Below, piece by piece: positions 1-36,740 of a DNA stretch of 37,116 nt. This DNA is from Lachnospiraceae bacterium (GTDB lineage Bacteria > Bacillota > Clostridia > Lachnospirales > Lachnospiraceae). The position numbers and the translations under genes are program-made. The stretch is taken from assembly GCA_017614155.1 (NCBI GenBank), contig JAGACK010000045.1:1-37116 (forward strand), in the 5' to 3' direction. Every line of letters starts with the position of its first letter. Within the stretch, counting starts at the first letter, position 1. The notes under the pieces were generated by a model. That model had not been told where the DNA came from and did no database searches. It saw nothing but the letters and a program-made list of their open reading frames with translations.

Positions 1-108
1 GTAAATGCATTATCATGTACTGTTCTGCATCTACAATTGGAACTATTGTGGCACTTTTGTGGTACCTAAGTTCCTTTTACCACTTGAAACCCTTGATTTT
101 ACCGGGGT

Positions 109-228
109 TTACTTGCCTGTTGACTTCAAGGTCGGGAACAACAACACATCCCTAATTGCAGTACTTTTCATAATAAGTGCCAATAACCTGTCTATTCATC
201 ATCCGATCATACCGTACAATGGCATTTT
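109..228 (-). pseudogene. Displaced 3' remnant of lysS
   Basis: Read on the minus strand from the ATG at 225, this stretch translates as a decayed copy of the LysRS C-terminus. MPLYGMIG, two stop codons, then [17 protein letters not shown] and a stop at 109-111 align without gaps to [27 protein letters not shown] in intact lysS. About 22 of 35 residues match, including the class II motif 3 region. Two in-frame stops replace the YG of motif 3, so it cannot be functional. Homology stops abruptly at the shared 6-mer GGCATT (221-226 here, 3621-3626 in lysS). Beyond this point the toxin gene begins. This is what a displaced gene end at an integration site looks like. The alternative is a remnant of an unrelated second lysS. 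Confidence 0.8.
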
Positions 229-230
229 TA

Positions 231-788
231 CTACAGTTTCAGGTCTTTATACCACTGAGGAGTATTCCTGACCGACCACTCGCATTTGCCGTTACGAAAA
301 ATCGATATTCTGGTCAGTTTGAGCGAATTATCATAGATTGTCGCCATATTGCATATGGGCAGTATCAGTTTAAGGTTCTTCAAGCTTTCATGGTATCTTC
401 TCTCGATATCTTCTTCCGAAATACCGTGTCCTCCCTGTGATACCCTGTGATCAACCCTGTCCTTTGCCGTTTTTGAACAGTCAAGGCCGATATAATACAG
501 TTCTAGTTCATATCCAAGTTTTTCAGCCCTTTTCATGTTGTTGATAATGCTTCTTCCGCACAAAGTGGTTTCCTGGCTGAAAGAAGCACCGTTTGTGAAA
601 CACTCCTCTATCTTTTCCAGTACGATCTTTCCTGCCTTTTTTACATCTGACGGATTGTGCCAGCTGCCGAAGGATCTGACTGTTTCATCAAAATTGATCT
701 TTACTATATCCGAAAAAACATCTTCTGTTGAGTAAAATGTCGTTTTTCCTGCGCCATTTACTCCGGCTATGACAACAAATCTCTTCAT
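231..788 (-). CDS. Zeta-toxin-like P-loop kinase
   Basis: A 185-residue protein resembling the zeta toxin/COG4185 group of small P-loop kinases. Residues 9-17 (GVNGAGKTT) form a Walker A loop. Further on are the FDE acidic segment, an ETTL segment like the substrate-recognition loop of zeta toxins, and the RVSQGGHGI...RYHESLKNL block typical of the family. Characterised zeta/PezT toxins phosphorylate UDP-N-acetylglucosamine and poison cell-wall synthesis; that this one does so is inference. I start it at the ATG at 788, which overlaps the upstream stop codon (TGATG) and follows a GAGGA site. A longer version starting at 812 would run into the upstream gene. It is the second gene of a two-gene unit and ends directly beside the lysS remnant. 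Confidence 0.8.
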   Translation of the reverse strand: MKRFVVIAGVNGAGKTTFYSTEDVFSDIVKINFDETVRSFGSWHNPSDVKKAGKIVLEKIEECFTNGASFSQETTLCGRSIINNMKRAEKLGYELELYYIGLDCSKTAKDRVDHRVSQGGHGISEEDIERRYHESLKNLKLILPICNMATIYDNSLKLTRISIFRNGKCEWSVRNTPQWYKDLKL

Positions 789-1020: not shown

Positions 1021-1049
1021 ATTATAATGTAATTTCCGTGCAGACTCAA
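1021..1049 (-). promoter_or_regulatory. Sigma-A-type promoter of the toxin-antitoxin pair
   Basis: On the minus strand TTGAGT (1049-1044) is separated by 17 bases from a perfect TATAAT (1026-1021). The promoter overlaps the recombinase stop codon, so the TA pair can be expressed independently of the recombinase. The predicted transcript starts near 1014 and includes the GGAGG site and GTG of the antitoxin. Confidence 0.65.
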
Positions 1050-3493
1050 CCCGGTCTGTTGGGATCAGATACCATTACCCCCTCTTTCAGTCTCTCTATC
1101 TTTTTTCTTACTGATTCCCTGGTCGGAAAACTGTATTTTGTCGTCCACCCCGTAATAGTTTCCTTTGATTCTTCTCTATCCCTTATGCCCTCCGCTTTAT
1201 ATCGTTTTTCTGAGTAGGACTCCTTCCAATCCGGAGACATAAGCTGGAATCCGCTCTTTGTCCACTTGATTATTCCATTCAGATAATCCCATCCTTCTAC
1301 AGGGGTTATCCCGCTTTGGATGAGTTGTCTGATAAATGACGGGTCATACATCCTGTCTTCATAATCATGGATTGACAGATCATCCGGACAGAGTTTGTCG
1401 TCGTTTTCAAAATAGACCGCCCTGCTCCTGTTCTCAACTTTTCCCGTCGTCTCAGTATCATTATAGTCAAAGCTTTCGTACTCTTCTTTTTTGAGGATAT
1501 CAGGCATAACCTCCACTTCCAGGAAACGCTTCGAGGCATTCTGCACTTCTTCCTGATCAGCTCTCCTGTTAGTATTTACAGATACTATAGGATCTGTAAG
1601 ATCAAATATCAGATACTTTGCACCACATATGCTACAGACATCTCCAAGTATTTTATACTTACTCTCCTTATCCCACTCTTCTGATTCAAATATAGCTTTG
1701 CTGAGTGCACCTGCAGGACACCTCACCATACTGATCTCCCCGGAATCCTTTATCCACCTGAGAGTCTGTGCTTTGGATGACTCCGATCCCGCAAGACGGA
1801 TATAAATATCTTTCCTTACAGGATTAAACAGGATCTCAACCCTGTCTGCTCTTCCATCCGGTACCAGCCTTTTATAGCACTCTTTATTGAAAAAAATACC
1901 GCATTTGTCGATAGTGACCACAGGCTTTCTCTGTATACTGAAGAGTCTCCCGCTCACGGGAAGGCATCCTTCATGACCATTATTGTTTTTTACTGATATT
2001 TTGCTCCTGATACTCTTTAACAGGATCTCCAGTTCTGATTCCACCTCTTCAGGTATCTCTTCCTCCGGTTCTTTCTGATCTTCACCTGTATATGCCGGGG
2101 CAGAATCAAATTCCTCTTTAGAAACAGCATAGAAATGACTGATAGTTTTTTCGTCATCTTCATCCGACACAAGACCATCTTCTTCAACATCATTCTGACC
2201 GGCAGAGCTCATAGCACTCATAACATAGTCAGGATATAAGGACTCTTCTTTCATATCGATACCATATCCCCGGAGAGAAGCTCTTAAATAGTCTGAAAGA
2301 CAGAATCCATGCCATCTCGGAACGGTAAGGACACATCCCTGAAGAGCACCGGCATTATACGTTTTCAGCACCTGTACCCCCTCCGCCCATCCGCCCCTGT
2401 TGCCTCTTTTGATCTTAAGTGCCAGATAATAGTCCTCCCGGGAGATTATTGCCGGATGCTGATCCAGTCCATAATACTGTTTGATATTTCTGTAATTTTT
2501 TCTGACTTTATGCTCCAGGCAGTCTATGGTGTATGTCTTTTGCGCAAGAACATCTCCGCATTTCTTTTCGTTTTCAAGAACGTTCAAAACCGATGACGCT
2601 GTCCAGTCATAGTTTCCCTCTTTCCTGCTGCCGTCAAAATAAACATGTGTATGCTTTCTTCTGCGAAGTTCTCTGAGAGTATCTGCGATCTCAGCAGGGA
2701 TAAACCCGGCCAGATACATATCATAGATCAAACGTATCGTTTCTGCCTCTTCTTCATTAACGCTGATCTCATTGACTCCGCTCCTGTCATACCCAAGTGA
2801 ATCGGGCACAAGAAAAAAGCCCTCATCATACCTCATACGCTGCGCTGAGGTTATGGCTTCAGACTTCTTTACGCTTTCCTGTTCCGCAAATATCGCCAGC
2901 ATGGATATCGCAAGATCCATAGCAGGATCAAATGTACTGAGAGTTTCTGTCTCAAAGTAGATTTCCACCGGCGGGCTCAATGATTTCAGCTTTTTTATCA
3001 TAAATCTGAAATCATTTGAATTTCTGCTGAATCTTGATACGCTTTTGGTGACGATCATATCGATCTTTCCGGCCTCAGCATCCTGAAGCATCATCTGCAG
3101 ACCTCTTCTGCCTTTGATCGTAGTAGCAGAAAGACCCTCATCTGAATACAATCCTATCAGATTCCACCCGGGATGATTTTTTACATAGTTTATATAAAAA
3201 CTTTTTTGTGTTTCAAATGATTGTGTCTGGGAAATCCCATCCGTAGACACTCTGCAGTATATCGCTACTTTACGTGCTTCCTGCTGCCCCTTATCCTGAT
3301 CTCCCGAAACCGGTTTGATAACACTTATCTTACTTAGATCTTTACCTTTTCTGTGAAGCTCCCTTAGTGTTTTATACTGTTCGGTAGATAATTTGCCATG
3401 GGAATATGATAGCAGTAAAAATTTGCATTTAGTGCAAATTATAAAAAAAGCTGCCACAATTTCTGTGGCAGCCTGATCGGGCAAATTCCGCAT
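1046..3493 (-). CDS. Large serine recombinase (start uncertain)
   Basis: A large serine recombinase. The resolvase-type catalytic domain spans about residues 75-220, with nucleophile Ser83 in YCRVSTDG and the VSRFSRN arginine motif at 151-157. It is followed by the recombinase domain (EAETIRLIYDMYLAG region). The usual CxxC zinc-ribbon is not visible. Instead there is a GCVLTVPRWHGFCLSDYL segment, an acidic linker and a second conserved-looking domain (IFFNKECYKRL...VEILFNPVRKDIYIRL), as in some clostridial recombinases. The start is doubtful: the only canonical in-frame start is the ATG at 3493, which has no clear ribosome site and lies upstream of the lysS terminator. No in-frame ATG, GTG or TTG occurs between that terminator and the catalytic domain. 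An ATG at 3399 (ATGGC then AAATTATCT) is one base out of frame with the plausible N-terminus KLSTEQ. The gene may be 5'-damaged. Confidence 0.75.
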   Translation of the reverse strand: MRNLPDQAATEIVAAFFIICTKCKFLLLSYSHGKLSTEQYKTLRELHRKGKDLSKISVIKPVSGDQDKGQQEARKVAIYCRVSTDGISQTQSFETQKSFYINYVKNHPGWNLIGLYSDEGLSATTIKGRRGLQMMLQDAEAGKIDMIVTKSVSRFSRNSNDFRFMIKKLKSLSPPVEIYFETETLSTFDPAMDLAISMLAIFAEQESVKKSEAITSAQRMRYDEGFFLVPDSLGYDRSGVNEISVNEEEAETIRLIYDMYLAGFIPAEIADTLRELRRRKHTHVYFDGSRKEGNYDWTASSVLNVLENEKKCGDVLAQKTYTIDCLEHKVRKNYRNIKQYYGLDQHPAIISREDYYLALKIKRGNRGGWAEGVQVLKTYNAGALQGCVLTVPRWHGFCLSDYLRASLRGYGIDMKEESLYPDYVMSAMSSAGQNDVEEDGLVSDEDDEKTISHFYAVSKEEFDSAPAYTGEDQKEPEEEIPEEVESELEILLKSIRSKISVKNNNGHEGCLPVSGRLFSIQRKPVVTIDKCGIFFNKECYKRLVPDGRADRVEILFNPVRKDIYIRLAGSESSKAQTLRWIKDSGEISMVRCPAGALSKAIFESEEWDKESKYKILGDVCSICGAKYLIFDLTDPIVSVNTNRRADQEEVQNASKRFLEVEVMPDILKKEEYESFDYNDTETTGKVENRSRAVYFENDDKLCPDDLSIHDYEDRMYDPSFIRQLIQSGITPVEGWDYLNGIIKWTKSGFQLMSPDWKESYSEKRYKAEGIRDREESKETITGWTTKYSFPTRESVRKKIERLKEGVMVSDPNRPG
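3420..3440. repeat. Perfect inverted repeat (8-bp arms, 5-base loop)
   Basis: AATTTGCA, a 5-base loop, then TGCAAATT. It lies just downstream of the lysS terminator on the transcribed strand and is followed there by a short T run. It could be a weak second terminator or a recombinase or regulator binding site near the island's right end. Confidence 0.5.
3443..3472 (-). terminator. Intrinsic terminator of greA-lysS
   Basis: On the minus strand a perfect 9-bp stem (GCTGCCACA / TGTGGCAGC) with a 5-base loop is followed by seven T residues, about 43 bases past the lysS stop. It falls within the extended reading frame of the recombinase, which argues against that frame being translated from 3493. 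Confidence 0.85.
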
Positions 3494-28253: not shown

Positions 28254-28306
28254 GCCTCGGTGTTCCGCAAGGGACACCGGGGCACTCCTCATTTATGGGG
28301 TTTTTT
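28254..28306. repeat. Strong hairpin plus short hairpin and T run after the alarmone synthetase gene
   Basis: GCCTCGGTGTTCC and GGGACACCGGGGC (28254-28283) form a long GC-rich stem with two mismatches and a GCAA loop. On the plus strand it is followed by a 5-bp hairpin (28287-28300) and six T residues. On the minus strand it follows the alarmone synthetase stop but lacks a clean T run. It probably ends the atp-to-alarmone transcript. The rest of the 28011-28253 gap holds the 28104 hairpin and the 28045-28073 promoter, and I see no gene in it. Confidence 0.6.
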
Positions 28307-28973
28307 ATTTGATAAGCCTGAGACTTGCGATAGCGCCTTCGTCCTCAGTGCCGTCCTTGATCTCTTCGTTCAGGGACATCATCTTGGCATCCAGATCCGA
28401 TACCATCTCGGCACATTCAGAAAGCTCTCTCTTGATATGCTCGGGGACTTCTCCCTCATATTTGTAATTAATCTTATGCTCGAGACTGGCCCAGAAATCC
28501 ATGGCGACAGTCCTTATTTGGATCTCCACCTTTGTATCGGTTCTTCCGTCAGACAGAAAGATCGGCACTGACACTATCATGTGATAGCTCTTGTATCCGC
28601 TCTCCTTGGGATTCTTGATATAATCCTTGATCGACAGGACACGGATATCGCTCTGCTTTGCAAGCATATCAGCGATCCGGTAGATATCCGCAGTAAAGGA
28701 GCAGATGACCCTGATTCCCGCGATGTCATTCACATACCTGACCATGTTATCTATGGACGACTCATACCCCCGCCTTCTCAGCTTCTTTACTATGCTTTCC
28801 GGCGTCTTGATCCTTGATTTGATGTGTTCTATCGGGTTGTACTGATGAATATGCTGGAATTCGTCATTGAGTATCTCAAGCTTTGTGCCCACTTCCTTCA
28901 ATGCCGAATTGTACAGAAGTATGATATTTTTCCAGCTGTCCACTCCCTCGCCTTCGTAATTGATCCTGTCCAT
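28305..28973 (-). CDS. Small alarmone synthetase ((p)ppGpp synthetase, RelQ/RelP type)
   Basis: A 222-residue stand-alone RelA/SpoT synthetase domain that makes (p)ppGpp or pGpp from ATP and GDP/GTP/GMP. The hydrolase, TGS and ACT domains of long Rel proteins are absent. Motifs include NDIAGIRV (82-89), KDYIKNPKESGYKSYH (116-131, with the substrate-contacting Lys/Tyr residues) and EIQIRT (150-155), then a C-terminal helix as in RelQ tetramers. The ATG follows a GAGGGGAA site. It lies 25 bases after a small unknown gene that itself follows atpC by 9 bases, so stress-alarmone synthesis seems tied to the ATP synthase transcript. Confidence 0.9.
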   Translation of the reverse strand: MDRINYEGEGVDSWKNIILLYNSALKEVGTKLEILNDEFQHIHQYNPIEHIKSRIKTPESIVKKLRRRGYESSIDNMVRYVNDIAGIRVICSFTADIYRIADMLAKQSDIRVLSIKDYIKNPKESGYKSYHMIVSVPIFLSDGRTDTKVEIQIRTVAMDFWASLEHKINYKYEGEVPEHIKRELSECAEMVSDLDAKMMSLNEEIKDGTEDEGAIASLRLIK

Positions 28974-29274: not shown

Positions 29275-31081
<1,807 letters not shown>

Positions 31082-31104: not shown

Positions 31105-31989
31105 CTAATTGTGTAAATTGCCTGACCTGGCTCCGGCGCTCACCTCAGTTATCTCCTGGGTAATGCCTGCCTGTCTCTTTCTGTTGTATCTGACCTTCAG
31201 CTCCTGGACTATCTCATCCGCGCTGTCATTTGCCGCCCTCATTGCCTGCATGCGGCTGTTCTGCTCACAGCAGTAGGATTCCACCAGCGCGCTGTAGACA
31301 AGTCCGGCCACATATGGCGGGATGATGGCGCTCAGGACCTCTTTCGGCGACGGATGTATGATAAACTCCTCCCTGGGAACATCTGAAGGTATATCCTTTA
31401 GCGGCATTTCCTTTTCAAGCGGCATGAGCTTCATAACTCTCGTTTCCGTTTCCAGGGAATTCTTCATTGCCGTGAAAACCACGGTCAGATCGTGTATCTT
31501 TTCCTCTTCGAAATCCTTCAGGAATGTGTTCGTTATGACCCTGGCTCTTGCTCTCGTGGGATTCTGGACTGTATAGGTAAAGTTTTCCTCTATGGATATC
31601 TTTCTCTGCTCAAAAAATCTTCTGCCCGCCTCTCCGACAACATAAAGGCGGGATGACTTTCCCTTCATCAGCCTGCCTGTCTCTTTGAGCACATTGGCAT
31701 TATAGGATCCGGCCAGACCCTTGTCTGCGGTCACAACGAGAAAACCATGCGTCGTCTCGCTTTCCGGTCTCTCCTCATCTCCTCTCAGATACGGATGCGT
31801 CATATCCGGAAAATGTCTCATCATCCTCTGCATCAGGCTCTGAAGGCCGTAAAAATACGGCTCGATATCTTCCATGCTTTTTTTTGCGCGGCGAAGCTTG
31901 GTGGATGATATCAGATACATGGCATTGGTGATCTTTCTCGTATCCTGAATGCCTTTTATTCTGTTTTTGATGTCTGCTGAGCCAGCCAT
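31105..31989 (-). CDS. atpG: ATP synthase gamma subunit
   Basis: The rotor shaft of F1, 294 residues. It has the N-terminal helix (DIKNRIKGIQDTRKITNAM), the central Rossmann-like domain (FLVVTADKGLAGSYNANV) and the C-terminal helix (MRAANDSADEIVQELKVRYNRKRQAGITQEITEV). The ATG lies 34 bases inside the alpha gene's end and follows AAGGA; no later in-frame start exists that keeps the conserved N-terminal helix. The overlap is therefore probably real. Confidence 0.97.
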   Translation of the reverse strand: MAGSADIKNRIKGIQDTRKITNAMYLISSTKLRRAKKSMEDIEPYFYGLQSLMQRMMRHFPDMTHPYLRGDEERPESETTHGFLVVTADKGLAGSYNANVLKETGRLMKGKSSRLYVVGEAGRRFFEQRKISIEENFTYTVQNPTRARARVITNTFLKDFEEEKIHDLTVVFTAMKNSLETETRVMKLMPLEKEMPLKDIPSDVPREEFIIHPSPKEVLSAIIPPYVAGLVYSALVESYCCEQNSRMQAMRAANDSADEIVQELKVRYNRKRQAGITQEITEVSAGARSGNLHN

Positions 31990-33761
31990 TTTTCCTTATA
32001 TTCCCTGACCGTTTTTATTATCACATCCCTGAATCCGTCCGGCAGTTCTTTTTTTATGTTCAGTTCGCTGATGATCGTTTCATGATTTTCCCTTATCTCT
32101 TTTAAGAGATCTGTCTGGAACTGCTTTACCTGATCGATGGGTATCCCCATGAAGAGCTTCTCGTTAGCCGCGACGAGTGACACAACCTGCTCAGGCATGG
32201 AAAGCGGATTTCCGACATTCTGTTTCAGTATTTCTATCAGAGCTCTTCCGTTATCGAGCTGTTCCTTTGTTGCAGGGTCCAGATCCGATGAAAACTGTGT
32301 AAAAACTTCCATTTCCCTGTACTGTGCCAGATTTATCCTCAGCGCCCCGGTTGCCTTTTTCATTGCCTTGCTCTGGGCCGCTCCGCCGACACGTGAAACC
32401 GATAGTCCCACATTTACCGCCGGTCTGATTCCTTCAAAAAAGAGATCTCCCTCGAGGAATATCTGTCCGTCAGTTATGGAAATGACATTTGTGGGGATAT
32501 AGGCTGATACATCTCCTTCCAGGGTTTCGATTATCGGAAGCGCCGTTATCGATCCGCCCCCCAGGCTCTCCTTCAGGCGGCTCGATCTTTCAAGAAGCCT
32601 TGAATGAAGGTAGAATACATCCCCGGGATAAGCCTCTCTTCCGGGAGATCTGCCCAAAAGCAGGGATATCTCCCTGTATGCGACCGCATGCTTGCTCAGA
32701 TCATCATAGACTATCAGAACATCTTTTCCCTGCTGCATGAAGTATTCTGCTATGGCAGTCCCTGCGTAGGGAGCGACATACTGTAATGATGCAGGTTCGC
32801 TTGCGGTGGCGCTGACTATCACGGTATGGTCCATCGCGCCGTTCTTTTCAAGTATCTGTGCCACTTTTGCAACCGTGGATGCTTTCTGTCCTATTGCGAC
32901 ATATACACAGATCACTCCCTTATCTTTCTGGTTAATGATCGTATCCACGGCTATTGAGGTCTTTCCGGTCTGTCTGTCCCCTATGATCAGCTCCCTCTGT
33001 CCGCGTCCTATGGGGAACATGCTGTCGATAGCCAGTATCCCCGTTTCCATCGGTGTGTTCACCGGATGTCTTTCTATAATGGCGGGGGCAGGATGTTCTA
33101 TGGGCCTGAATCCCATCTTTTCTATCTTTCCCTTGCCGTCGATCGGCTCGCCCAGCGCGCTGATAACTCTCCCGGGCAGATTGTCTCCGACCTCGATCCC
33201 CGCTTCGGACATGGTCCTTGCAACCTTCATGCCCTCAGTGATGTCATCCTCATCGCCAAAGAGCATGACACCCATCCTTTTCCTCTCTATGCTCATCACC
33301 ATGCCTTTTATGCCGTTGTCAAAAAGCACTACTTCCCCGTAAAAGGCATGGTCGATTCCTTCTATGAGCGCAACGCCGTCGCCGACCTTTGTCACGAATC
33401 CTATCTCACGGCTCTCAGCCTGCAGTTCAAAATTCTCCACCTTCTCACGAAGTACGGATACGATGTCTGCAGCTGCGTTCTCGGCAGTTTCATCTATATC
33501 ACTTTTTTCAAGAAGGCTTCGAAGCTGTCTGAGTCTCCCTCTGTTGCTCCAGTCATACTCCTCGTTTTCAACACGAAGAATGAAGCCGCCCTTGAGCGAC
33601 CTGTCTTCTTTTATCTGTATCTCAACTTCGGGAACCCCGTATTTATTCTTTATGAACTCTTCTATGCCCTGAAGCCTGTTCTCGTCAGGCTTTGTGACAT
33701 ACAGAAGCGTTGCGGTTATATGATCTTTGACCTCGTCAAACACTTCCGGATCATCCGTCAT
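31956..33761 (-). CDS. atpA: ATP synthase alpha subunit with fused delta C-terminal domain
   Basis: A 601-residue alpha subunit with a ~92-residue N-terminal extension. From residue ~97 it is standard alpha (ADIVSVLREKVENF..., P-loop GDRQTGKT at 261-268, VSRVGGAAQ arginine-finger region). E. coli alpha has its P-loop at 169-176, which gives the offset. Residues 1-88 resemble the C-terminal domain of the delta subunit (AtpH): TATLLYVTKPDENRLQGIEE, then SLKGGFILRVENEEYDWSN and GRLRQLRSLLEK, matching the SLIGGxIxRxxDxxxDxSxRGRLxxL delta signature. The fusion is in frame with no break. The start is secure: GGAGG is 7 bases upstream and the ATG overlaps the atpF stop. No separate atpH lies between atpF and atpA, and the delta N-terminal domain is missing. 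Confidence 0.9.
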   Translation of the reverse strand: MTDDPEVFDEVKDHITATLLYVTKPDENRLQGIEEFIKNKYGVPEVEIQIKEDRSLKGGFILRVENEEYDWSNRGRLRQLRSLLEKSDIDETAENAAADIVSVLREKVENFELQAESREIGFVTKVGDGVALIEGIDHAFYGEVVLFDNGIKGMVMSIERKRMGVMLFGDEDDITEGMKVARTMSEAGIEVGDNLPGRVISALGEPIDGKGKIEKMGFRPIEHPAPAIIERHPVNTPMETGILAIDSMFPIGRGQRELIIGDRQTGKTSIAVDTIINQKDKGVICVYVAIGQKASTVAKVAQILEKNGAMDHTVIVSATASEPASLQYVAPYAGTAIAEYFMQQGKDVLIVYDDLSKHAVAYREISLLLGRSPGREAYPGDVFYLHSRLLERSSRLKESLGGGSITALPIIETLEGDVSAYIPTNVISITDGQIFLEGDLFFEGIRPAVNVGLSVSRVGGAAQSKAMKKATGALRINLAQYREMEVFTQFSSDLDPATKEQLDNGRALIEILKQNVGNPLSMPEQVVSLVAANEKLFMGIPIDQVKQFQTDLLKEIRENHETIISELNIKKELPDGFRDVIIKTVREYKEKWLAQQTSKTE

Positions 33762-34296: not shown

Positions 34297-34518
34297 TCAC
34301 TGCAAAAAGAACACTATCAGTATTCCGATGAGAAGACCATAGATAGCTGTCGCTTCAGCAAGCGCGCATCCGAGCAGCAGTATCTTCATGATCTTTCCGT
34401 CTGCTTCCGGCTGTCTGGCCACTGCATCCACAGCCTTTGCCGTCGCTATGCCTATTCCCACTCCGGCTCCTATTCCGGTCATCGCTGCTATACCGGCTCC
34501 TAACGCTGTCAAACTCAT
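34297..34518 (-). CDS. atpE: ATP synthase c subunit
   Basis: The ring-forming proteolipid of Fo, 73 residues. Two membrane helices (about 6-27 and 46-72) are joined by the polar ARQPEADGK loop. The ion-carrying carboxylate is the Glu in [11 protein letters not shown]. The Na+-type residues of Ilyobacter (Gln32 and Ser66) are replaced by Ile and Ala, so the ring is more likely proton-coupled; this is inference. A GGAGG site precedes the ATG. Confidence 0.96.
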
Positions 34519-34562: not shown

Positions 34563-35249
34563 CTATTCAATCGCTTCCTTGATGTACAAAGATGTCAGAA
34601 ATACAAACACATACGCCTGTATCAGGCCGTCAAAAAGATCAAAATACAGACAGAGCGCTGCCGGCAGCACTATCGGAACAGCCATCTTTACCAGCTCCAT
34701 TATCACAAACGCAGCAAAGACATTTCCGAAAAGACGCATGCACAATGACAGCGGCTTGATACCCAGTTCAAGCACATTCATCGGTGCTACAACTGCCATG
34801 GGTTCCGCAAATGACTTGAAGAACTTTTTCGGACCCTTTTTTTTGAAGGCAGCAGCCTCGATCAGGACAATGCTCATGAGAGCGAGCGCCACAGTCACCC
34901 TGAGATCTCTCGTCGGCGGTGTCACATTGAATATGCCTACCACATTCGCGATCCCCAGATATATCAGAATAGTGCTGATATACGGCACATATTCCCTTGC
35001 CTCTTCACCGAGCATGTCTCCCGTGAGATTCTGAATCCATACAACAAAAGACTCTATCATTATCTGCTTTTTTCCGGGATTTCTGACCTTCAGATCACTC
35101 GTCATGATAAGCGTGACCACCAGAAGCAGAGCCATGATGCACCATGTGACCAGCACCGACTGATTCACATCAATCCCTCCGAAAAGAGGAATCGTAAATG
35201 CCGTCTTTATTTCAAGCTCTTCCATCAGTTTTGCCGATAGATCTCCCAA
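34563..35249 (-). CDS. atpB: ATP synthase a subunit
   Basis: The Fo channel subunit, 228 residues, with five to six membrane segments. The essential arginine is in LSLCMRLFGN. Other conserved regions are VVWIQNLTGDMLGEE and GIFNVTPPTRDLRVTVALAL. The start is a TTG at 35249, chosen because GGGGAGGTGA lies 9 bases upstream; an ATG eight codons on has no such site. It is the first gene of the atp operon. No atpI is visible upstream. Confidence 0.95.
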   Translation of the reverse strand: MGDLSAKLMEELEIKTAFTIPLFGGIDVNQSVLVTWCIMALLLVVTLIMTSDLKVRNPGKKQIMIESFVVWIQNLTGDMLGEEAREYVPYISTILIYLGIANVVGIFNVTPPTRDLRVTVALALMSIVLIEAAAFKKKGPKKFFKSFAEPMAVVAPMNVLELGIKPLSLCMRLFGNVFAAFVIMELVKMAVPIVLPAALCLYFDLFDGLIQAYVFVFLTSLYIKEAIE

Positions 35250-35387: not shown

Positions 35388-36740
35388 TCACGCAGACTTC
35401 TTTTTCGCTGCCTTTGCCTCAAGCGCCTTGTCGGTGGGCTTCACCAGGATCAGGCATGCCAGCAGAGCTACAACATAAAGAGCCAGCGTCGCATACAGCA
35501 CATTCTGATACCCTACCGGATTCACCTTGATTCCGTCATGTTCCACGAACTCTCCGGTATGATTGACGATATATGTCGCCATCTGATTTCCCGTCAGTCC
35601 GGCAAATGCCCACGCCGAAAGAGTAATACCGTGTATCGCGCTGATGGATCCCATTCCGTAGTGATCCGAAAGCAGCGTGGGAACATTTGAAAATCCTCCG
35701 CCGTAGCCCGCGTTCACTACAAAGATCAGTCCTACAACCAATGCGATAAGGAGAACATTTCCCTCACCGTTGACTATACCCTTTGTCAGCATCACGATAC
35801 CCGTGAATGCGATTGAAAGGATGAATATCAGTTTATAGATCGTGTTTCTGTCCTTCAGCAGATCAGCCCATGCTGAAAAACCAAGCCTTCCGCCGGCATT
35901 GAAGATCGCGGAAATCGATGATATCAATCCAACCGAACCGGCAAGGCCGATACATTTGACTATGGGCTTTTCCTGAGATATGAGCGCCAGACCGCAGGTA
36001 ATGTTGATATAGAACATCAGCCAGATACCGATGTAGTTTGATATCGGCTTGGTCTTTATCGTCTCAAGGATGCCGGGCTTCTTTTCACCCTTGCTCGGCT
36101 CATGCCAGCCGTCGGGTTTCTTCAGGAGAAGATGTCCGATCATCATCATTACAAAATAAACCATTCCCAGGAACCAGAACATCTTGTATACTCCGCTCCC
36201 GTCATCCCATGTCTTCAAAAGAGAAGTCATGATGGGGCTCGCTATGGCCTTTGCTGCTCCGAATCCGGCTACTGCAAGCCCGGTTGCCAGTCCCTTTTTA
36301 TCCTGGAACCACAGCATCAGCGTCTTTACGGGTGAAAGGTATCCTGTTCCGAGACCCACTCCCATAATAAAACCGTAACTGACATATATACCAACCAGAG
36401 CAAGCGGACTTCCCTTATGGTTTCCGCCATATGCGATGAACACGCCGGTCAGCAGCATTCCTGCCGTAAAGCAGATCGTTGCGATAAGAGAGGACTTGTG
36501 GATATCCTTCTCAACAACATTTCCCAAAAATGCAGCCGACATGCCCAGGAAGAATATGGCAAAACTGAATGCCCATTCAACACTCGCTTTTCCGAACCCG
36601 ATGTGGTCCGCGATCTCCTGGCTGAAGACAGACCAGCAATAAACGGTACCTATGCTGCAATGTAATAATAACGCCGGTATGGCCGCTCTGACCCATTTGT
36701 TGGTACGCCATCCTCCGGACTGTTTTGATGAATCACTCAT
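35388..36740 (-). CDS. OFA-family MFS transporter (oxalate/formate antiporter type)
   Basis: A 450-residue major facilitator with 12 predicted membrane helices. The first loop TVYCWSVFSQ and the long hydrophilic stretch between helices 6 and 7 (KPDGWHEPSKGEKKPG) fit the OFA family, named for the oxalate/formate antiporter OxlT. Other members carry lactate or other monocarboxylates, so the substrate is open. It has its own promoter and terminator and lies just upstream of the ATP synthase operon. Carboxylate exchange can build proton-motive force for that enzyme, but the link here is only positional. Confidence 0.88.
   Translation of the reverse strand: MSDSSKQSGGWRTNKWVRAAIPALLLHCSIGTVYCWSVFSQEIADHIGFGKASVEWAFSFAIFFLGMSAAFLGNVVEKDIHKSSLIATICFTAGMLLTGVFIAYGGNHKGSPLALVGIYVSYGFIMGVGLGTGYLSPVKTLMLWFQDKKGLATGLAVAGFGAAKAIASPIMTSLLKTWDDGSGVYKMFWFLGMVYFVMMMIGHLLLKKPDGWHEPSKGEKKPGILETIKTKPISNYIGIWLMFYINITCGLALISQEKPIVKCIGLAGSVGLISSISAIFNAGGRLGFSAWADLLKDRNTIYKLIFILSIAFTGIVMLTKGIVNGEGNVLLIALVVGLIFVVNAGYGGGFSNVPTLLSDHYGMGSISAIHGITLSAWAFAGLTGNQMATYIVNHTGEFVEHDGIKVNPVGYQNVLYATLALYVVALLACLILVKPTDKALEAKAAKKKSA

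What the first reader, a model, noticed from the sequence alone, without database searches (positions are those of the whole stretch)
31956..33761. ATP synthase alpha carries the delta C-terminal domain; delta N-terminal domain and atpH are absent
Seen: an unbroken 601-codon gene whose first ~92 residues resemble the b-binding C-terminal domain of delta (SLKGGFILRV, GRLRQL), followed by complete alpha. The b gene overlaps its start by four bases, so no atpH can hide there. Known: delta normally has an N-terminal six-helix domain that binds the alpha N-termini and a C-terminal domain that binds b. Inference: covalent fusion replaces the alpha-delta interface. But F1 has three alpha chains and normally one delta, so fusion gives three delta tails per F1. 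Either only one is used, or three contact the b stalk or the membrane, or the extra ones are cleaved. This would be a different way to build the peripheral stalk.
Basis: partly seen in the sequence, partly recalled or inferred. Interest (0 to 1): 0.88.

Follow-up and report, generated by a model that had tools for sequence, protein, structure and literature searches.

The report
ATP synthase with stalk socket on alpha
In this gut-type bacterium the socket for the outer support stalk of the ATP-making motor, normally present once, is built into a subunit that occurs three times, so the natural enzyme may carry up to three stalks, as a laboratory-engineered version of the same layout was recently shown to do.

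Summary
Confirmed. On the minus strand (33761..31956) a 601-codon gene joins the C-terminal, b-binding domain of ATP synthase delta (Pfam OSCP 95-171 of 172) to a complete alpha. The operon is a-c-b-(delta CTD-alpha)-gamma-beta-epsilon, without room for atpH. No other delta and no delta N-terminal domain (NTD) was found in the 94.7% complete genome.

The layout is the one Ueno et al. [quoted passage not shown] Their discussion already names natural cases (Acidaminococcus fermentans, two UniProt entries), so the kind is in print.

What my searches did not find in print:
- the fusion is widespread in the window's family (at least 75 of 397 sampled genomes);
- it has two sharply separate forms, whole delta on alpha and CTD only;
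- the tree asks for repeated NTD loss: 21 CTD-only origins on the best tree, 14 on supported branches, if the NTD is never regained; one locus shows an in-frame 81-codon deletion;
- one genome has a b-delta CTD-alpha triple fusion (one assembly).

Most likely each F1 has three b-binding sites and more than one stalk. Stalk number in a natural enzyme is untested.

The parts
31956..33761 (-). delta CTD-alpha fusion gene, 601 codons plus stop
33513..33743 (-). delta C-terminal (b-binding) domain, residues 7-83
   Evidence: Pfam OSCP; fold match to delta CTDs
33411..33473 (-). retained alpha N-terminal helix region, about residues 97-117
   Evidence: alignment; helix at model residues 86-96 = residues 100-110
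31986..33473 (-). complete alpha, residues 97-592
   Evidence: TIGR00962
33758..34255 (-). b subunit gene; overlaps the fusion start by 4 bases
   Evidence: Pfam ATP-synt_B
34297..34518 (-). c subunit gene
34563..35249 (-). a subunit gene (first start listed is TTG)
31105..31989 (-). gamma subunit gene
29684..31078 (-). beta subunit gene
29275..29709 (-). epsilon subunit gene, both Pfam domains present

Best explanation
An F-type ATP synthase whose alpha subunit carries the delta C-terminal domain, the socket for the b2 stalk, while the single-copy delta N-terminal domain, which in ordinary enzymes sits on the threefold axis and limits the enzyme to one stalk (Ueno et al.), is gone. Shown here: the fusion, its conservation under selection, no separate delta or delta N-terminal domain detected, and relatives in which that domain was lost after fusion. 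Inferred from the engineered PS3 enzyme of the same layout: a b2 dimer can dock on any of the three sockets, each b2 brings an a subunit, and the enzyme works with more than one stalk. That would raise the number of ions per ATP and lower the proton-motive force needed for ATP synthesis.
Against: No enzyme of this family has been studied as protein. In the engineered enzyme 66% of cryo-EM particles had one stalk or none. Relatives keep the whole delta on alpha with the N-terminal domain under purifying selection (dN/dS 0.098, one pair, L119 versus L138), so fusion alone does not force a symmetric enzyme. a and b are encoded once each in the operon; dosage could not be tested. The model's C-terminal CTD helix and linker are of low confidence, and the superposition on whole 9jc1 chains is poor (rmsd about 17 A), so domain placement is not predicted.
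Confidence: 0.58

Rival explanations
1. Single-stalk enzyme: only one of the three fused CTDs binds b2, because one a/b2 unit is limiting or fills the space; the other two CTDs only cap the alpha N-termini.
For: 51% of the engineered PS3 particles have one stalk. a and b are each encoded once in the operon, and one b is over the Pfam cut-off in the genome. Whole-delta fusions exist, in which three N-terminal domains could hardly all use one axis site.
Against: Biochemistry of the engineered enzyme gives about two functional a subunits. The domain said to enforce one stalk was lost repeatedly.
Confidence: 0.3
2. Mixed alpha pool: internal translation start or proteolysis yields plain alpha, so that each F1 carries about one fused and two plain alpha chains.
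For: 16 of 76 NTD-less and 5 of 37 whole-delta loci have an in-frame start with a Shine-Dalgarno-like stretch before the alpha helix (18 loci without the motif and 2 cut at the 5' end were not scored). The window's nearest relative L035 has an ATG and a GTG there, without such a stretch. The linker evolves fast (dN/dS 0.24-0.33 in the 4 of 10 pairs with unsaturated values).
Against: The window, L036 and L066 have no start codon there; 17 of 76 NTD-less loci have none even through the helix. Proteolysis is not testable here.
Confidence: 0.1
3. Artefact: a frameshift, wrong start or mis-assembly joins two genes, or an atpH lies in the missing part of the genome.
For: Draft genome of 59 contigs, 94.7% complete.
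Against: Same frame in 32 of 37 congeners and at least 75 of 397 family genomes; sharply bimodal geometry; purifying selection; 0 of 22 like genomes with a delta N-terminal domain.
Confidence: 0.02

Closest known systems
Engineered deltaDeltaN-alpha FoF1 of Bacillus PS3 (Ueno et al. 2025, PMC12229609; PDB 9jc1)
   Same: Delta CTD fused by its C-terminus to the alpha N-terminus, delta N-terminal domain deleted, no separate delta; one-stretch alignment over window 20-594.
   Different: Man-made, and also lacks the epsilon C-terminal domain; the window operon keeps an epsilon with both Pfam domains and has a linker of its own.
Natural fusions named by Ueno et al.: Acidaminococcus fermentans, UniProt G4Q3K6 and A0A1I2C5T3
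   Same: Described in their discussion as delta-alpha gene fusion with the delta N-terminal domain missing.
   Different: Those sequences were not in reach and were not compared here; common or separate origin is unknown.
Mycobacterial b-delta fusion
   Same: Delta joined covalently to a stator subunit (recalled).
   Different: Joined to b, not alpha (recalled). The b/delta model PRK13428 scores the window's b at 15.8 against cut-off 328.
N-ATPases
   Same: F-type enzymes without a delta subunit (passage read in PMC5706428).
   Different: There b is longer and E-like; here the delta CTD sits on alpha, and the N-ATPase alpha and b cut-offs are not reached.
V-ATPase with three peripheral stalks
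   Same: Three stalks on one head (passages read in PMC6131620).
   Different: EG stalks on subunit B with a collar of other subunits; not the delta/b system.

Membership tests
F-type ATP synthase alpha | TIGR00962 over its curated cut-off | tested here: met
   732.4 bits, cut-off 484.45
ATP synthase delta/OSCP | C-terminal domain by sequence and fold | tested here: met
ATP synthase delta/OSCP | N-terminal helical domain | tested here: not met
   absent from the gene; not found in the genome at E <= 10, controls 8 of 8
deltaDeltaN-alpha FoF1 (Ueno et al. 2025) | delta CTD fused to the alpha N-terminus, N-terminal domain missing, no separate delta | tested here: met
deltaDeltaN-alpha FoF1 (Ueno et al. 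2025) | more than one peripheral stalk and a subunit per F1; raised H+/ATP | not testable with these tools
   needs purified enzyme
N-ATPase | alternate F1F0 alpha and b models over cut-off | tested here: not met
   TIGR03324 601.5 of 750.5; TIGR03321 75.3 of 224.7
b-delta fusion (PRK13428) | b and delta in one chain | tested here: not met
   b is its own 165-aa gene; model score 15.8 of 328

The most novel reading that the evidence does not exclude
[quoted passage not shown] They arose by fusing delta to alpha and then, over and over, deleting the one domain that keeps ordinary enzymes at a single stalk; one lineage went further and put b on the same chain. Ions per ATP would then be tuned by stalk number, not only by c-ring size.
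Probability: 0.45. Interest if true: 0.92.

Novelty: new member of a known kind. Interest (0 to 1): 0.74.

Why it matters
Ueno et al. state that all ATP synthases so far have a single a subunit, and that FoF1 with several had not been identified in nature. If these natural enzymes have several stalks, the H+/ATP ratio is set by stalk number as well as by c-ring size, which would change how energy budgets of gut and rumen anaerobes are reckoned. The three forms seen here (separate delta, whole-delta fusion, CTD-only fusion), some in sister branches, give natural pairs for a direct test. Records named as strains carry two of the forms: Absicoccus porci YH-panp20 (CTD only) and Clostridium fessum SNUG30386 (whole delta).

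Tried and rejected
Separate delta or delta N-terminal domain elsewhere in the genome: none found. Internal start: not in the window. N-ATPase: cut-offs not reached.

Hidden N-terminal domain between b and CTD in NTD-less relatives: no room in 78 of 78. 13 NTD-less loci and 1 whole-delta locus had no recognised b and were left out of that count. The loci hold near-copies, because one genome can come in by two tools.

Separate deltas inside the fusion clade (older state or re-fission): not resolved. In FastTree they nest among fusions; in the careful trees the forks around them are weak.

Swapping of N-termini between lineages instead of loss in place: of 14 NTD-less rows tested, the CTD is nearest to a whole-delta row in 10, mostly by narrow margins, and clearly so only in L189 (0.68 against 0.46). 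In 4 (L161, L170, L178, L181) it is nearest to another NTD-less row. The number of independent losses is therefore an estimate.

Tree limits: (FastTree) 48 of 152 inner branches are under 80; bootstraps had not settled. Before, loci with broken, open or short alpha or beta were dropped (191 of 240 used, 155 after removing near-copies). L213, L182 and L238 were dropped as long branches. L193 was wrongly labelled whole-delta and corrected; L122 was re-labelled separate by hand. In one search the whole-delta label is hardly clustered (shuffles as low in 122 of 500).

The count is a lower bound: its list was cut. In one search only matches at E <= 1e-27 were looked at. The empty genus search held one genome, so the triple fusion could not be cross-checked.

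Literature: (open-access papers; no preprints). Among the titles and abstract starts listed I saw no delta-alpha fusion other than in Ueno et al. 2025. Of that paper I read parts 1-4 of 7; of PMC5706428 and PMC6131620 passages only; of the rest, listings. The mycobacterial b-delta fusion is recalled.

Full report
Observation. The interval holds, on the minus strand, one unbroken 601-codon gene. Pfam finds delta/OSCP in residues 7-83, only over the last part of the profile (95-171 of 172; 37 bits, cut-off 22.3), then the three alpha domains; TIGR00962 scores 732 bits against 484. The operon runs a, c, b, fusion, gamma, beta, epsilon, and b overlaps the fusion start by four bases. The alpha N-terminal helix region is kept after the CTD (alignment).

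Whose genome. Congener loci are the same contigs as records named Lachnospiraceae bacterium: L063 has the contig length of G001's contig, L065 that of G029's. So the window's family f1 is taken to be Lachnospiraceae.

Is delta elsewhere? The genome (2.64 Mb, 59 contigs, 94.7% complete) has one OSCP match, this one. A profile of 27 delta N-terminal domains of relatives (A4) finds nothing at E <= 10. The same profile rings in 8 of 8 control genomes of the family at E <= 2.2e-24; four of them (G069, G287, G325, G419) had a row in the profile, the other four (G308, G146, G352, G423) rang at 2.1e-24 to 5.9e-29. Of 22 other fusion genomes picked for one weak OSCP match, 0 have such a domain at E <= 0.01. 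Other matches to the alpha/beta nucleotide-binding family in the genome are frames of 593 and 465 aa side by side (V/A-type by size, not tested), 462 aa and 478 aa. One b is over the Pfam cut-off.

Selection. In the 6 of 10 pairs with unsaturated synonymous change, CTD dN/dS is 0.06-0.15; alpha is 0.02-0.08 (9 of 10 pairs) and the linker 0.24-0.33 (4 of 10) (simple counting method). Nine CTD residues, P25, G59, F60, L62, D70, W71, S72, G75 and R76, are invariant in 26 sequences.

Distribution. Genus: fusion frame in 32 of 37 genomes, own included. 2 of these (G003, G014) carry most of the delta N-terminal domain, 8 also hold a separate full delta, and one (G026) is cut by a contig end; 5 genomes have no fusion match. 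Family sample: at least 75 of 397 (list cut; counted; G149 and G207 are cut by contig ends). Of the 74 fetched, 47 have the CTD alone, 26 the whole delta and one a third form. Phylum sample: of 398 genomes 31 have a match at E <= 1e-27; besides four of the family, two have a frame without stops, G722 and G538. The collection scan gave 116 stretches encoding a relative of the CTD, 80 kept; many of them are separate deltas.

Three forms. Of 242 loci, 240 have an alpha, three of them broken in frame. The extension before alpha is under 30 residues (separate delta), 71-143 (CTD only, 91 loci) or 171-198 (whole delta, 41 loci); L193 stands apart at 268. From the b stop to the CTD there are -38 to 61 nt in 78 CTD-only loci and 244-290 nt in 40 whole-delta loci. 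Whole-delta forms keep a recognisable N-terminal domain: all 41 match the A4 profile, in which 17 of them or their like have rows.

Order and number of events. In alpha+beta trees the two fused forms are interleaved. The careful tree of 68 rows needs 16 changes for the CTD-only label, 12 forced by starred branches. If the N-terminal domain is never regained there are 21 origins of the CTD-only form on the best tree and 14 on supported branches alone, 13 within the 63-row fusion clade plus L262. L262 (G538) falls with ordinary separate-delta operons, so its fusion looks independent. L263 (G722) pairs with L207 and Absicoccus (L113) with L190, inside the fusion clade, which suggests transfer. 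The clearest single case is L189. Its sisters L119 and L138 are whole-delta; L189 has counterparts of their first eleven codons and then, in frame, their CTD, 81 codons shorter. The likely route is whole-delta fusion first, then removal of the N-terminal domain, many times. Swapping of N-termini is not excluded for some rows.

How it most likely works. In ordinary enzymes one delta binds three alpha N-termini, with its N-terminal domain on the threefold axis (Ueno et al.). They removed that domain and fused the CTD to alpha. The product had a and b at 2.2 and 1.8 times wild type, an equilibrium pmf of 68 instead of 133 mV at Q = 2.5, H+/ATP 5.8 +/- 0.4 against 3.0 +/- 0.2, and particles with 0, 1, 2 and 3 stalks at 15, 51, 26 and 8%. 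They conclude that the delta N-terminal domain restricts the number of stalks to one. The window protein has the same order of parts. Three sockets per F1 follow from stoichiometry (inference); use of more than one is my best-supported expectation (by analogy, 0.58). With c-ring size n and k a subunits, ions per turn would be nk (their relation), or nk/3 per ATP. The main rival is a single-stalk enzyme with two idle sockets.

What is in print. Ueno et al. say that Acidaminococcus fermentans and two UniProt entries show the fusion without the N-terminal domain and may be multi-stalk. The kind is therefore known, and the window gene is a new member. The spread in Lachnospiraceae, the whole-delta form, the repeated losses and the triple fusion did not come up in the searches named under Tried and rejected.

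Triple fusion. L193 (genome G128) has one 778-aa frame with Pfam b (residues 9-137), OSCP and the alpha domains, no other b in the operon, and none over the cut-off in the genome. If real, every alpha brings exactly one b. It rests on one assembly, the only genome held for its genus, and the joint lies in an A-rich stretch, so an indel error is possible.

Noticed in passing
L193:3156-5492 (+): b-delta CTD-alpha triple fusion of 778 aa; the only b over the Pfam cut-off in that genome. Single assembly, unconfirmed.
   Followed up: partly
L189 (G244:C23:249500-259500): In-frame 81-codon deletion of the delta N-terminal domain relative to sister whole-delta fusions L119/L138, with counterparts of the first 11 codons left.
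   Followed up: yes
L141, L119, L032 and other whole-delta loci: Whole delta fused to alpha with the N-terminal domain still constrained (one pair tested); three such domains per F1 would have to share one axis site.
   Followed up: partly
L262 (G538): CTD-alpha fusion in another family of the phylum, without the DWS motif, falling with ordinary operons in the tree: apparently an independent origin.
   Followed up: partly
window 35388-36740 (-): MFS transporter gene upstream of the a gene (best NCBIfam SfMCT 221.9 bits, under its cut-off of 320); same neighbour seen in L036/L065, L038/L064 and L066.
   Followed up: no
window 28305-28973 (-): 222-aa RelA/SpoT-domain protein downstream of epsilon (PF04607, 122 bits), a likely small alarmone synthetase.
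   Followed up: partly
window 1046-3493 (-): 815-aa large serine recombinase (Resolvase and Recombinase domains), a possible mobile-element gene.
   Followed up: partly
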